From NCBI RefSeq assembly GCF_000447755.1, contig NZ_AUNE01000029.1, positions 1 through 64,000 on the forward strand: 64,000 bases of DNA, read 5' to 3'. A program made the position numbers and the translations under genes. Shown here piece by piece: positions 39,099 to 42,769 of the stretch. The notes below the pieces were generated by a model that was not told the DNA's origin, did not search any database, and was given only the letters and a program-made list of their open reading frames with translations. Each line of letters begins with the position of its first letter. Position 1 is the first letter of the stretch. Source of the stretch: Bacteriovorax sp. BSW11_IV (lineage in GTDB: Bacteria; Bdellovibrionota; Bacteriovoracia; Bacteriovoracales; Bacteriovoracaceae).

Positions 39099-39617
39099 TT
39101 ATTCATTTTCGCAGTATGGAATTGAATATGGCTTAGTAAAGACTTCTTCATAAACGTCACGTCTATTATCTCTACTTCCTACAGTTCTCACAAATTTTGA
39201 AACTGTAATATCACGATCAAGATCTTGCTCAATAGTGTAAGGGATTTTCTTACAGTTCTTATCTTTACCGTTACACACTTCTCTGTAAGATGTATAAACA
39301 ATTGGATAAGAGTAGTATTCATGGCCAGTAATGATTCTCTCTGGCTCTTTATCTCCACCTTTTCTTGGACCAAATCCATAAACAGGCTCTTTGTTGATTG
39401 TTCTTAGATTATCCCCATCAACACATACGTTGAATACGTTAGAGATTTTACCAACAAATGCCCAAGTATTAGCAAGTTTGTAATCTGCTCTTTTTCTGAT
39501 TGATTCCCAACTCTTTGAAGAAGGCTTCGTTCCAGTAGAGCTTCCACCAGCGATTCCACCAGAACCACCTAGAGTATTTAAAGAAATCAACGCCGTAATT
39601 ATTAATAACTTTTTCAT
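39099..39617 (-). CDS. Exported protein, paralogue of the 40562-41041 product
   Basis: The 172-residue protein has an N-terminal hydrophobic segment (MKKLLIITALISLNTLGG) and a Gly/Ser-rich spacer. The remainder is closely related to the protein encoded at 40562-41041: both share NTWAFVGKI, NVFNVCVDG, LRT-NKE-VYG-GP, GGDK-P-R-ITG and DITVSKFVR-VGSRDN. Conserved cysteines (in VCVDG, EVCNGKDKNC and near the C-terminus) suggest disulphides. No known family is recognised. It starts 5 bases after the TIGR02147-type regulator gene, so the two are co-transcribed. Confidence 0.8.
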   Translation of the reverse strand: MKKLLIITALISLNTLGGSGGIAGGSSTGTKPSSKSWESIRKRADYKLANTWAFVGKISNVFNVCVDGDNLRTINKEPVYGFGPRKGGDKEPERIITGHEYYSYPIVYTSYREVCNGKDKNCKKIPYTIEQDLDRDITVSKFVRTVGSRDNRRDVYEEVFTKPYSIPYCENE

Positions 39618-40561: not shown

Positions 40562-41041
40562 TTATAGACAGCTTGGGATAGAGAAAGATTTCTTGAAAAG
40601 AGTCTTGTAAACAGGTCTCTTGTTATCTCTGCTTCCAACTTCTCTTACGAATTTAGAAACTGTGATTTCTCTATCTAGTTTTTGGTTAACTTCAGTAGTT
40701 ACCATTTTACATCTGTTGTCGTTCTTACCTGTACAAACTCTTGACTCGTAAGTGTAGTTGATTGGGTAAGTGTAGTACTTGTAACCAGTGATAACTCTTA
40801 CAGGATCCTTATCTCCACCTCTGTGTGGTCCGTATCCGTAAACAGCTTCTTTGTTAAGAGTTCTTAGGTTTTCACCGTCAACACATACGTTGAATACGTT
40901 AGTGATTTTACCTACGAATGCCCATGTGTTTTCAAGTTTAACACCTGAAGTAGCTTTGATTGTTTCCCAGCTATCAGTTTCAGAAATGGCCATTGTGTTC
41001 ATAGAAAGAGCGATTGCAGCTAAAGCGATAAGTTTTTTCAT
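40562..41041 (-). CDS. Exported protein, paralogue of the 39099-39617 product
   Basis: About 159 residues from the ATG at 41039-41041, preferred over one four codons earlier because GGAGG lies at 41047-41051 and the protein then begins with a standard signal peptide (MKKLIALAAIALSMNTMA). The mature part is homologous along its length to the 39099-39617 product (for example ENTWAFVGKITNVFNVCVDG). Conserved Cys, Tyr and Asp residues suggest a compact disulphide-bonded periplasmic or secreted protein. Transcribed alone with its own terminator. Function unknown. Confidence 0.82.
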   Translation of the reverse strand: MKKLIALAAIALSMNTMAISETDSWETIKATSGVKLENTWAFVGKITNVFNVCVDGENLRTLNKEAVYGYGPHRGGDKDPVRVITGYKYYTYPINYTYESRVCTGKNDNRCKMVTTEVNQKLDREITVSKFVREVGSRDNKRPVYKTLFKKSFSIPSCL

Positions 41042-41217
41042 AACATCCTCCAAAAGGTTTGTTTATCAGTCAGTGTGAACTGTTTTTGTTTTTGTGTTGG
41101 AGGGAAAGTAATTCGTGCTAATTTATTTGTCCAAATGACTTCACATTTTCTGTGAAAAAGCAGGACAGCGTCAAAAAGGGGCCTAAATTTTATGACAAGT
41201 AGGGCCCCGTGTCACGA

Positions 41218-41517
41218 CTAAGACTTGCGAGTTCGACGCTCAAGTTCTTGAATTAATTCAGTTGTTGGGACTTTCGTGAGGATTTCATGCTCGTTGTCGC
41301 TAAGCTCACTTAATGTGTTCAGGACACCGGCCTTGTATAACATAGCGGTATATTGTTTACGGCTTAATATGTATCCGTTGCTCTTTTGATGAAAATCTTC
41401 TTCTGAAAATTTGAGCAGCGCCATTAAATCATTTGGATCGAGTCCCGCCCTAGATGAGTAAGTAAAAAATGATGGTTTAGTTACTATGTAACATTGTTGT
41501 GTCGTTGTATTTTCCAT
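41218..41517 (-). CDS. Hypothetical protein
   Basis: 99 residues from the ATG at 41515-41517; a TTG at 41553 would add 12 residues, but neither start has a clear ribosome binding site. The product is charged and helical toward the C-terminus (SDNEHEILTKVPTTELIQELERRTRKS), without signal peptide or TM helix. No family is recognised. It lies between the exported-protein gene and the small RNA locus and is read away from the latter. A possible TTGACA is present about 45 bases upstream of the ATG. Confidence 0.5.
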   Translation of the reverse strand: MENTTTQQCYIVTKPSFFTYSSRAGLDPNDLMALLKFSEEDFHQKSNGYILSRKQYTAMLYKAGVLNTLSELSDNEHEILTKVPTTELIQELERRTRKS

Positions 41518-41632
41518 AGAGAGATTTTTACTTGAGAAGAAGATTTTCGACAAGCAAATGGTGTCAAAAAAATGAAATTATATACTTTAGATGGTGCCAC
41601 TAAGCCCATGAATAAAGGCCCTAGGGCCAGTT

Positions 41633-41662
41633 TGTCAAAAAACGTCAGTCACTGTTTTGACA
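41633..41662 (+). promoter_or_regulatory. Inverted repeat, candidate activator site for the small RNA promoter
   Basis: TGTCAAAA (41633-41640) and TTTTGACA (41655-41662) are perfect inverted 8-base arms 14 bases apart, centred about 80 bases before the predicted start of transcription. A third copy, TGTCAAAA, is at 41562-41569. Position and symmetry suit an enhancer-binding activator of a sigma54 promoter. Confidence 0.5.
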
Positions 41663-41700: not shown

Positions 41701-41717
41701 TTGGCATTGTATTCGCA
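41701..41717 (+). promoter_or_regulatory. Candidate sigma54 (-24/-12) promoter
   Basis: TTGGCATTGTATTCGCA contains GG and GC with exactly ten bases between them and keeps TGGCA and the terminal GCA of the sigma54 consensus. Mismatches are at the sixth and seventh consensus bases and one T of the -12 element. Predicted start of transcription is near 41728. Confidence 0.5.
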
Positions 41718-41727
41718 TTATATAAAA

Positions 41728-41936
41728 GTAGAAAGGCAAGAGAAGCCGCTTCAAGGATGAATAAGCAACTCTACTAAAATGCCTAATTAATTCACGGAAG
41801 AATTAGAAATACTACTGGTGAGAAAATGAGTTTTTCATTCCCTCTCTCCCCGAATTTTCTCCATTCGCTCCCAGTAGAAATGTAAATCGGGCCCTTTTTC
41901 CAAGTTTTGAGTCGGCAAGGAAAAAGGGCCCTTTTT
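41728..41936 (+). ncRNA. Predicted structured small RNA, about 209 nt
   Basis: This fills the longest gene-free stretch of the window (41518-41938). No plausible protein is encoded; the longest ATG frame is 19 codons. The transcript would contain a 6-base-pair hairpin with loop ACGGAA (41787-41806), a long two-part stem with CTACTGG / CCAGTAG (41812-41818 with 41871-41877) and GAGAAAAT / ATTTTCTC (41820-41827 with 41854-41861) enclosing a C/U-rich loop (41836-41851), and a 13-base-pair terminator. A -24/-12-type promoter and an inverted repeat lie upstream. No match to 6S, tmRNA, RNase P RNA or the GEMM riboswitch is evident. Its function is unknown. Confidence 0.55.
41889..41936 (+). terminator. 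Strong Rho-independent terminator of the small RNA
   Basis: GGGCCCTTTTTCC (41889-41901) pairs perfectly with GGAAAAAGGGCCC (41919-41931) and is followed by five T residues. The T run lies only on the forward side, so it is not simply the protease gene's terminator. Confidence 0.88.
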
Positions 41937-41938
41937 AT

Positions 41939-42769
41939 TTAGAAGAAATTATTTAAAAAGTTTCCAGCACCATAGCCTGATGATTTAGCATCAACACCCC
42001 AGCGATAACATTCACCATCTTTGACAGTATTCATTCCAGTTCCTCTTACGAGAACACCAATGATGTCGTTATTTTCTGTTGAAAAAATTGGTGAGCCAGA
42101 ATTTACACTAAATGTATCCAGGTGGTGGATAAAACTGTCACGAAAGATGTCATTCTTTTCGATGAAACCATTGTGAGTATACTTTTGAGAGATTCCCAGA
42201 GGAAATCCAATCATAAATATCTCTTCGCCAATTTCAGGTTTTTCTTTTCTAACATGCAGAGGTTTTCTATTTACAACATTGCGATCAAGCTCAATCACAA
42301 TAAGATCTCGTCCCATATAGTTTTTGTCTGCTAGGACTTTAACTACCTTTTTACAGAAATATGTATTTTCTTTTTTTGAAGTGAAATTCTTTTGTTGATC
42401 AGTATTTGAAACATAATCAAATGAGATAGCATACTGATCACAGGAGGCGCCATTGTCTTCATCAATACAATGAGCAGCTGTTAAGAAAGTATTTTCACTA
42501 ATAAGTGCACCGGAGCAATTGGCAATTATACTTTCATGAGCAAAGCGTTCGTCAGGACAAAAGTTCATTTTTTCAATGAGTGGCATTCCTTGAAGTGCAA
42601 AATCCCCACTTGGCAAATTCGTAAGATTTGATTTTCTAATAAGTGCACCAACAGATTGACCAATGTTTTGAATTTCAAGAGGAGCGTCTTTTATCTGTAG
42701 ACGATCATCTTGATCAAATATGTCAGCATTCGCATTTAAAATTGTGAGTAAGAGGATTAAATATTTCAT
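41939..42769 (-). CDS. Exported trypsin-like serine protease
   Basis: The 276-residue protein has a signal peptide (MKYLILLLTILNANA) and a chymotrypsin-fold protease domain. The catalytic triad is visible as H100 in FLTAAHCID, D155 in GRDLIVIELD and S224 in SVNSGSPIF. The oxyanion-side motif is NSGSP rather than GDSGGP, as in V8/S1B-type enzymes. Cysteines C71 and C85 precede the catalytic histidine. Probably secreted or periplasmic; a prey-digesting role would fit a predator but is only a guess. It converges on the small RNA, ending 3 bases from its T run. Confidence 0.85.
   Translation of the reverse strand: MKYLILLLTILNANADIFDQDDRLQIKDAPLEIQNIGQSVGALIRKSNLTNLPSGDFALQGMPLIEKMNFCPDERFAHESIIANCSGALISENTFLTAAHCIDEDNGASCDQYAISFDYVSNTDQQKNFTSKKENTYFCKKVVKVLADKNYMGRDLIVIELDRNVVNRKPLHVRKEKPEIGEEIFMIGFPLGISQKYTHNGFIEKNDIFRDSFIHHLDTFSVNSGSPIFSTENNDIIGVLVRGTGMNTVKDGECYRWGVDAKSSGYGAGNFLNNFF

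What the first reader, a model, noticed from the sequence alone, without database searches (positions are those of the whole stretch)
41701..41936. Orphan structured small RNA apparently driven by a sigma54 promoter
The only long gene-free stretch holds, in order, a -24/-12 element with GG and GC exactly ten bases apart, a predicted start near 41728, about 209 nt without a credible reading frame, several hairpins, and a perfect 13-base-pair terminator whose T run faces forward only. The large stem encloses a C/U-rich loop (41836-41851) complementary in character to G-rich Shine-Dalgarno sequences. It is not recognisable as a housekeeping RNA. A sigma54-dependent regulatory RNA (a type known in Myxococcus, for example Pxr) would be a good candidate for life-cycle control.
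Basis: partly seen in the sequence, partly recalled or inferred. Interest (0 to 1): 0.72.

Follow-up and report, generated by a model that had tools for sequence, protein, structure and literature searches.

The report
Sigma54-driven CsrA-binding small RNA
This stretch is very probably a real, conserved small RNA, switched on by the specialised sigma factor sigma54, whose hairpins look built to soak up the translation regulator CsrA, in bacteria that also carry the CsrA-blocking protein FliW; whether the two kinds of blocker ever work together is an open question in the field.

Summary
Window 41701-41936 holds a -24/-12 element, about 209 nt without a conserved reading frame, hairpins and a 13-bp terminator. 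A second species of the genus (G001) and five genomes of another genus (g3) carry a positional ortholog between the same neighbour genes. All have the sigma54 element, a shared UCCCUCUCU-type loop and terminators that differ between the genera; stems show compensatory changes. Rfam finds nothing.
The 5' half carries hairpins with GGA in the loop (UUCAAGGAUGAA; UAAUUCACGGAAGAAUUA), the RNA shape bound by CsrA: two here, four (six GGA) in g3. The genome encodes CsrA, FliW (adjacent to csrA) and RpoN. An Hfq search found nothing.
Best reading: a sigma54-induced CsrA-sequestering RNA, working like CsrB/RsmZ but unrelated in sequence. Its C/U loop, complementary to a ribosome-binding site including AUG, may add a base-pairing activity. 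Similar sigma54-plus-GGA-hairpin leaders precede secreted-protein and DksA-like genes in this family, two of them in this genome, suggesting a feed-forward circuit. Transcription, CsrA binding and function are untested. New variant of a known kind.

The parts
41600..41662 (+). candidate activator-binding (UAS) region: palindrome GGCCCTAGGGCC (41617-41628) and inverted repeat TGTCAAAA-N14-TTTTGACA (41633-41662)
   Evidence: read; in the other genus a perfect inverted repeat TGCCCCTA..TAGGGGCA lies at a similar distance, but the arms differ between genera; inference
41701..41717 (+). sigma54 -24/-12 element TTGGCATTGTATTCGCA
   Evidence: sequence; kept in G001 and five g3 genomes; RpoN in genome
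41728..41936 (+). small RNA transcript, about 209 nt; ends inferred from promoter and terminator
41750..41761 (+). GGA hairpin 1, UUCAAGGAUGAA (CsrA-type site; AGGA in loop)
   Evidence: identical in G001; structural counterpart with compensatory changes in g3; matches CARGGAUG of the CsrA SELEX consensus (PMC7652899)
41788..41805 (+). GGA hairpin 2, UAAUUC-ACGGAA-GAAUUA
   Evidence: G001 counterpart AUUCAAGGAUGAAU; two such hairpins in this RNA reached in 7 of 1000 shuffles
41812..41877 (+). large hairpin: outer stem CUACUGG (41812-41818) with CCAGUAG (41871-41877)
   Evidence: three pairs changed on both sides and still pairing in G001
41836..41850 (+). C/U-rich loop CAUUCCCUCUCUCCC, complementary to a complete SD-to-AUG region
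   Evidence: 15 of 15 identical in G001; similar C/U core in g3; exact 15-mer only once in each of the two genomes
41889..41936 (+). intrinsic terminator, 13-bp stem and T5
   Evidence: sequence; replaced in G001 by GGCCCCTATTAAC..GTTAATAGGGGCC-T6 and in g3 by GGTACCC..GGGTACC-TTT

Best explanation
A sigma54-dependent, stand-alone regulatory RNA that binds CsrA. When an unidentified enhancer-binding protein activates RNA polymerase-sigma54 at 41701-41717, a roughly 209-nt RNA is made. Its GGA-loop hairpins (two here, four in g3) bind CsrA dimers and take CsrA away from mRNAs it represses. Those mRNAs would include sigma54-transcribed messages with the same hairpins in their leaders (a subtilisin-like secreted protease and a DksA-like protein in this genome), so one signal would transcribe the messages and lift their translational block (coherent feed-forward). 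The 3' hairpin displays a C/U loop that could also pair with ribosome-binding sites, making it a dual-function RNA. Shown by sequence: the gene architecture, its conservation, the stems, the GGA loops, CsrA/FliW/RpoN in the genome, and the leaders. Inferred: transcription, CsrA binding, sequestration, targets, base-pairing, the activating signal.
For: Conserved promoter, GGA hairpins, C/U loop and terminator in a second species and, by position, in five genomes of genus g3 between lepB and the 42910 homolog. In g3 RNAalifold places GGA in the loops of four hairpins, with compensatory changes in two of them. GGA-hairpin number exceeds shuffles (window 7/1000, G091 0/1000, G094 1/1000, other g3 7-9/1000). 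The published CsrA SELEX site is RUACARGGAUGU with GGA in a hairpin loop (PMC7652899); hairpin 1 has CAAGGAUG. CsrA is a single copy next to fliW and RpoN is present. No Hfq found in 25 genomes of the phylum. Pattern sigma54 + CAAGGATG: 56 hits in 129 genomes, against 1 for the backward control. GGA leaders precede a subtilase and a DksA-like gene in the own genome.
Against: Only two GGA hairpins in the window copy, few for a sponge (E. coli CsrB has 22 GGA; PMC7652899). In G001 the hairpin count alone is weak against shuffles (73 of 1000 reach it). The 15-nt C/U loop is the longest unbroken conserved stretch between the two species, which titration alone does not explain. FliW is already there as a CsrA antagonist. 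No RNA-seq or binding data could be examined.
Confidence: 0.62

Rival explanations
1. A trans-acting base-pairing RNA whose C/U loop blocks ribosome-binding sites of target mRNAs; CsrA bound to the GGA hairpins acts as partner, chaperone or stabiliser (as reported for SR1 with ahrC in Bacillus subtilis) and is not the target.
For: The loop CAUUCCCUCUCUCCC is 15/15 conserved while the surroundings diverge, and complements SD plus AUG. Of 15 near matches in the two genomes, 8 put the AUG in register with an open frame. One orthologous pair, a lipoprotein gene with AGGAGAAAGGGAAUGAAAAA in both species, pairs at -27.4 and -21.9 kcal/mol. An Hfq search found nothing, so another partner would be needed.
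Against: Purine-rich SD+AUG sites match such a loop anyway. In g3 the CAU part of the loop is lost and the GGA hairpins double. No target set was tested.
Confidence: 0.25
2. A relic or remodelled 5' leader of a sigma54-dependent mRNA, cut off from its gene by a terminator, with little trans activity.
For: In other genera very similar sigma54 + GGA-hairpin leaders lead into secreted-protein or DksA-like genes.
Against: A terminator, stem compensation and loop conservation are maintained across two genera with no gene on the + strand directly downstream.
Confidence: 0.08
3. A sigma54-driven structured RNA unrelated to CsrA; the GGA hairpins are coincidence or bind another protein.
For: No binding data; only two hairpins in the window copy.
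Against: GGA loops kept through compensatory change, four hairpins in g3, and family-wide association of sigma54 sites with the same hairpin.
Confidence: 0.05

Closest known systems
CsrB/CsrC and RsmX/Y/Z RNAs (Gammaproteobacteria)
   Same: Stand-alone RNA with repeated GGA-loop hairpins and a terminator, in a genome with CsrA; expected to sequester CsrA.
   Different: No Rfam match; sigma54 promoter in place of one dependent on BarA-UvrY/GacA; two to six GGA instead of up to 22; extra C/U-rich hairpin; fliW present, which in the literature is anti-correlated with the BarA-UvrY type regulators of Csr RNAs and with CsrB/C (PMC7652899, PMC4894983).
McaS / GadY (E. coli dual-function RNAs)
   Same: At least two GGA motifs plus a base-pairing region (PMC7652899).
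   Different: No Hfq found here; different sequence and promoter.
SR1 (Bacillus subtilis), CsrA-assisted base-pairing RNA
   Same: CsrA may bind an RNA that also pairs with an mRNA (PMC7652899).
   Different: No sequence relation known; not compared here beyond the Rfam scan.
Pxr (Myxococcus xanthus)
   Same: A small RNA of three predicted stem-loops (PMC5684412) in a predatory bacterium; linked with sigma54 in the literature found.
   Different: No GGA-loop array described, to my knowledge; sequences not compared directly.

Membership tests
sigma54 (RpoN) promoters | GG-N10-GC -24/-12 element | tested here: met
   41703/41715; kept in seven genomes
sigma54 (RpoN) promoters | rpoN in genome | tested here: met
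   PF04552, E 6.9e-65
sigma54 (RpoN) promoters | upstream enhancer-binding site | tested here: inconclusive
   palindromes present upstream; strong inverted repeat in g3, but the arms are not shared between genera
CsrB/Rsm class of CsrA-sequestering RNAs (functional class) | independent non-coding transcript with own promoter and terminator | tested here: met
   (sequence only; transcript not measured)
CsrB/Rsm class of CsrA-sequestering RNAs (functional class) | multiple GGA motifs in hairpin loops | tested here: met
   two in window, four hairpins in g3; low end of the class
CsrB/Rsm class of CsrA-sequestering RNAs (functional class) | CsrA encoded in the genome | tested here: met
   PF02599
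CsrB/Rsm class of CsrA-sequestering RNAs (functional class) | binds and titrates CsrA | not testable with these tools
   needs gel shift / CLIP
CsrB/Rsm class of CsrA-sequestering RNAs (functional class) | controlled by BarA-UvrY / GacS-GacA | not tested
   a sigma54 element is found instead
Rfam families of known CsrA-binding RNAs (CsrB, CsrC, RsmX/Y/Z) | covariance-model match | tested here: not met
   no such hit; not filed as a member of those families
Pxr | sequence/structure homology (conserved SL1 and SL2) | not tested
   Pxr sequence not compared
Hfq-dependent base-pairing RNAs | Hfq in genome | tested here: not met
   PF17209: 0 of 25 genomes including the own one, while 5 of 14 controls ring

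The most novel reading that the evidence does not exclude
This family runs a joint sigma54-CsrA circuit: sigma54 transcribes both mRNAs with CsrA-blocked leaders (secreted proteases, DksA-like factors) and a dedicated CsrA sponge that also pairs with ribosome-binding sites, while FliW antagonises the same CsrA. It would be a case of RNA and FliW control of CsrA in one organism, outside the Gammaproteobacteria.
Probability: 0.4. Interest if true: 0.85.

Novelty: new variant of a known kind. Interest (0 to 1): 0.7.

Why it matters
[quoted passage not shown] A 2020 review states that whether FliW and sRNAs act together on CsrA in any species remains to be determined (PMC7652899). Genomes with fliW next to csrA and a conserved GGA-hairpin RNA make that directly testable.

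Tried and rejected
Rfam at gathering and relaxed thresholds: nothing credible. Small protein: frames not conserved; the short frame MSFSFPLSPNFLHSLPVEM in the window has no counterpart in G001. First covariance model R1 over 129 family genomes: only the two same-genus copies score high; the weak hits read were rejected as coding sequence, sigma54 promoters of protein genes, or a GGA hairpin beside an mRNA terminator. Model R2 from g3 finds its five members above 216 bits; most of the lower hits read (13 loci) are sigma54 + GGA mRNA leaders, but L170 (a transporter gene) looks like chance. No match in phage records. A G073 candidate near the syntenic protein turned out to be an mRNA leader. Searches failed on wrong coordinates.

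Full report
OBSERVATION. The region reads as described: TTGGCATTGTATTCGCA at 41701-41717 (GG-N10-GC), predicted start near 41728, a terminator of 13 perfect pairs (41889-41901/41919-41931) with T5. The flanking genes (41218-41553 and 41939-42769) are both on the minus strand, so the RNA would be a gene of its own. It folds with z = -3.8. No sigma70-like site is nearby. Rfam has no match.

CONSERVATION WITHIN THE GENUS. The only held same-genus genome, G001, has the counterpart at C2:61509. Around it are homologs of lepB, the 41221 protein, the trypsin-like protease and four further window genes in the same order. Promoter (TTGGCACCGTATTCGCA), UUCAAGGAUGAA hairpin, second GGA hairpin and the 15-nt CAUUCCCUCUCUCCC are kept. 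The outer stem of the large hairpin changed A-U to G-C, C-G to G-C and G-C to U-A and still pairs; with two sequences the shuffle control is not strong (56/500), but sliding the partners destroys the pairing. The terminator has a different sequence. No frame is conserved. Together this argues for selection on an RNA.

THE GGA HAIRPINS. UUCAAGGAUGAA contains CAAGGAUG; the CsrA SELEX consensus is RUACARGGAUGU, with GGA in a hairpin loop in 51 of 55 selected RNAs (PMC7652899). Hairpin 2 (UAAUUC-ACGGAA-GAAUUA) also has GGA in its loop. The genome has one csrA, in the order flgK-flgL-csrA-fliW (flgK and flgL by reading and a flagellin-domain match; FliW PF02623 E 3.8e-36). The protein is 78 aa, longer at the C-terminus than E. 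coli CsrA (own knowledge); FliW is reported to bind an extended C-terminus (PMC7652899). RpoN is present. Hfq was not found in any of 25 genomes.

ORTHOLOGS IN A SECOND GENUS. A search for the sigma54 element followed by CAAGGATG over 129 family genomes gave 56 hits in 46 genomes, against 1 for the backward control. In 13 of the 20 loci read, the stem around the GGA loop has at least three uninterrupted pairs. In genus g3 the RNA of G092, G093 and G094, and by synteny G003 and G091, is a stand-alone RNA: sigma54 element, four GGA hairpins (six GGA), a hairpin whose loop reads UUUCCCUCUCUCUAG (UUUUCCCUCUCU in G092), and a GGUACCC..GGGUACC terminator. RNAalifold puts GGA in the loops. Three pairs show change on both sides, and pairing is 98.5% against 31-47% when partners are slid. 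It lies between lepB plus the 41221 homolog and the 42910 homolog, as in the window (the 43353 homolog is also seen in four of the five). GGA hairpins exceed shuffles: 7/1000 for the window RNA, 0-9/1000 in g3; 73/1000 in G001 is weak.

A FAMILY-WIDE LINK BETWEEN SIGMA54 AND CSRA SITES. Model R2 and patterns recover sigma54 elements followed by GGA hairpins in 5' leaders of protein genes: small secreted proteins, in some cases followed by a matrixin-type protease, and DksA-like proteins. In the window's own genome there are two: a subtilisin-like secreted protease (C55:12955; Peptidase_S8 E 1e-56) whose start codon lies in a GGA repeat, with a G001 counterpart whose leader starts with AAAAGATCAGGAAGATCTTTT, and a DksA-family protein (C52:162925, hairpins CATCTCTAGGATGGAGATG and GATCAGGAAGATC). 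This suggests that CsrA holds sigma54 messages silent and the RNA relieves the block.

THE C/U LOOP. CAUUCCCUCUCUCCC is the exact complement of GGGAGAGAGGGAAUG, a ribosome-binding site with start codon. Within two mismatches the two genomes have 15 further matches, 8 with the AUG in register with an open frame. One is kept in both species: a lipoprotein gene starting AGGAGAAAGGGAAUGAAAAA (predicted -27.4 and -21.9 kcal/mol; no Pfam domain). Such sites are expected to resemble the loop, so this is a lead only.

MECHANISM. Most likely (0.62): sigma54-induced CsrA sequestration, possibly with a second base-pairing activity. Shown from sequence: gene architecture, conservation, stems, GGA loops, presence of CsrA, FliW and RpoN, GGA leaders. 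Inferred: transcription, binding, sequestration, targets, signal.

RELATION TO KNOWN SYSTEMS. It works like CsrB/RsmZ RNAs; it is not a member of their Rfam families (tested, not met). It differs in promoter class, GGA number, the C/U hairpin and the company of FliW. The literature reports fliW to be anti-correlated with the regulators of Csr RNAs and calls joint action undetermined (PMC7652899; PMC4894983). My literature searches gave no paper on CsrA RNAs in these bacteria; the library is open-access only and abstracts, not all full texts, were read.

LIMITS. The RNA was found with confidence in 2 of 48 genera; diverged copies may be missed. The genome-collection scan was wasted by a spacing error.

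Noticed in passing
L189 1501-1620 (G000:C3:5816+) and L208 (G001:C3:724494-): A second sigma54-driven RNA of about 95 nt with its own terminator, conserved in both species: a GGAG..CUCC hairpin with a GGA-containing tip, then a conserved single strand GUCGAAUGUCUCUC, then a CCCGCG/CGCGGG terminator.
   Followed up: partly
L163 1501-3050 (G000:C55:12955+); L202 (G001:C3:304968-): Secreted subtilisin-like protease behind a sigma54 element, with GGA repeats up to the start codon; the G001 counterpart has a perfect AAAAGAUC-AGGAA-GAUCUUUU hairpin in the leader.
   Followed up: partly
L213 and L215 (G000:C52:162925+ and 164179+); L192 (G001): DksA/TraR-like proteins behind sigma54-like sites and GGA-rich leaders; G018 and G073 (L165, L153) show long GGA-hairpin leaders before genes that read as DksA-like.
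   Followed up: partly
L162, L164, L166, L167, L168, L173, L174, L057, L004: A recurrent small secreted protein of about 110-135 aa, in some loci next to a matrixin-type protease, repeatedly carries the sigma54 + GGA-hairpin leader in several genera.
   Followed up: partly
window 39099-39617 and 40562-41053: Two paralogous small secreted proteins without a Pfam domain lie near the RNA in this genome; no homolog in the corresponding stretch of G001 or g3.
   Followed up: no
L141 (G000:C36) and L146 (G001:C3): Large lipoprotein gene (no Pfam domain) whose ribosome-binding site AGGAGAAAGGGAATGAAAAA is identical in both species and complementary to the C/U loop.
   Followed up: partly
L123-L125 (genus g8), 3' ends: sigma54 + GGA leader, small lipoprotein, then a 3' region with CTCTCTCCCTC next to the terminator, reminiscent of the C/U loop.
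   Followed up: no
G000:C43:2094-2294-: Another weak R2 hit (21 bits) in the own genome, not inspected.
   Followed up: no
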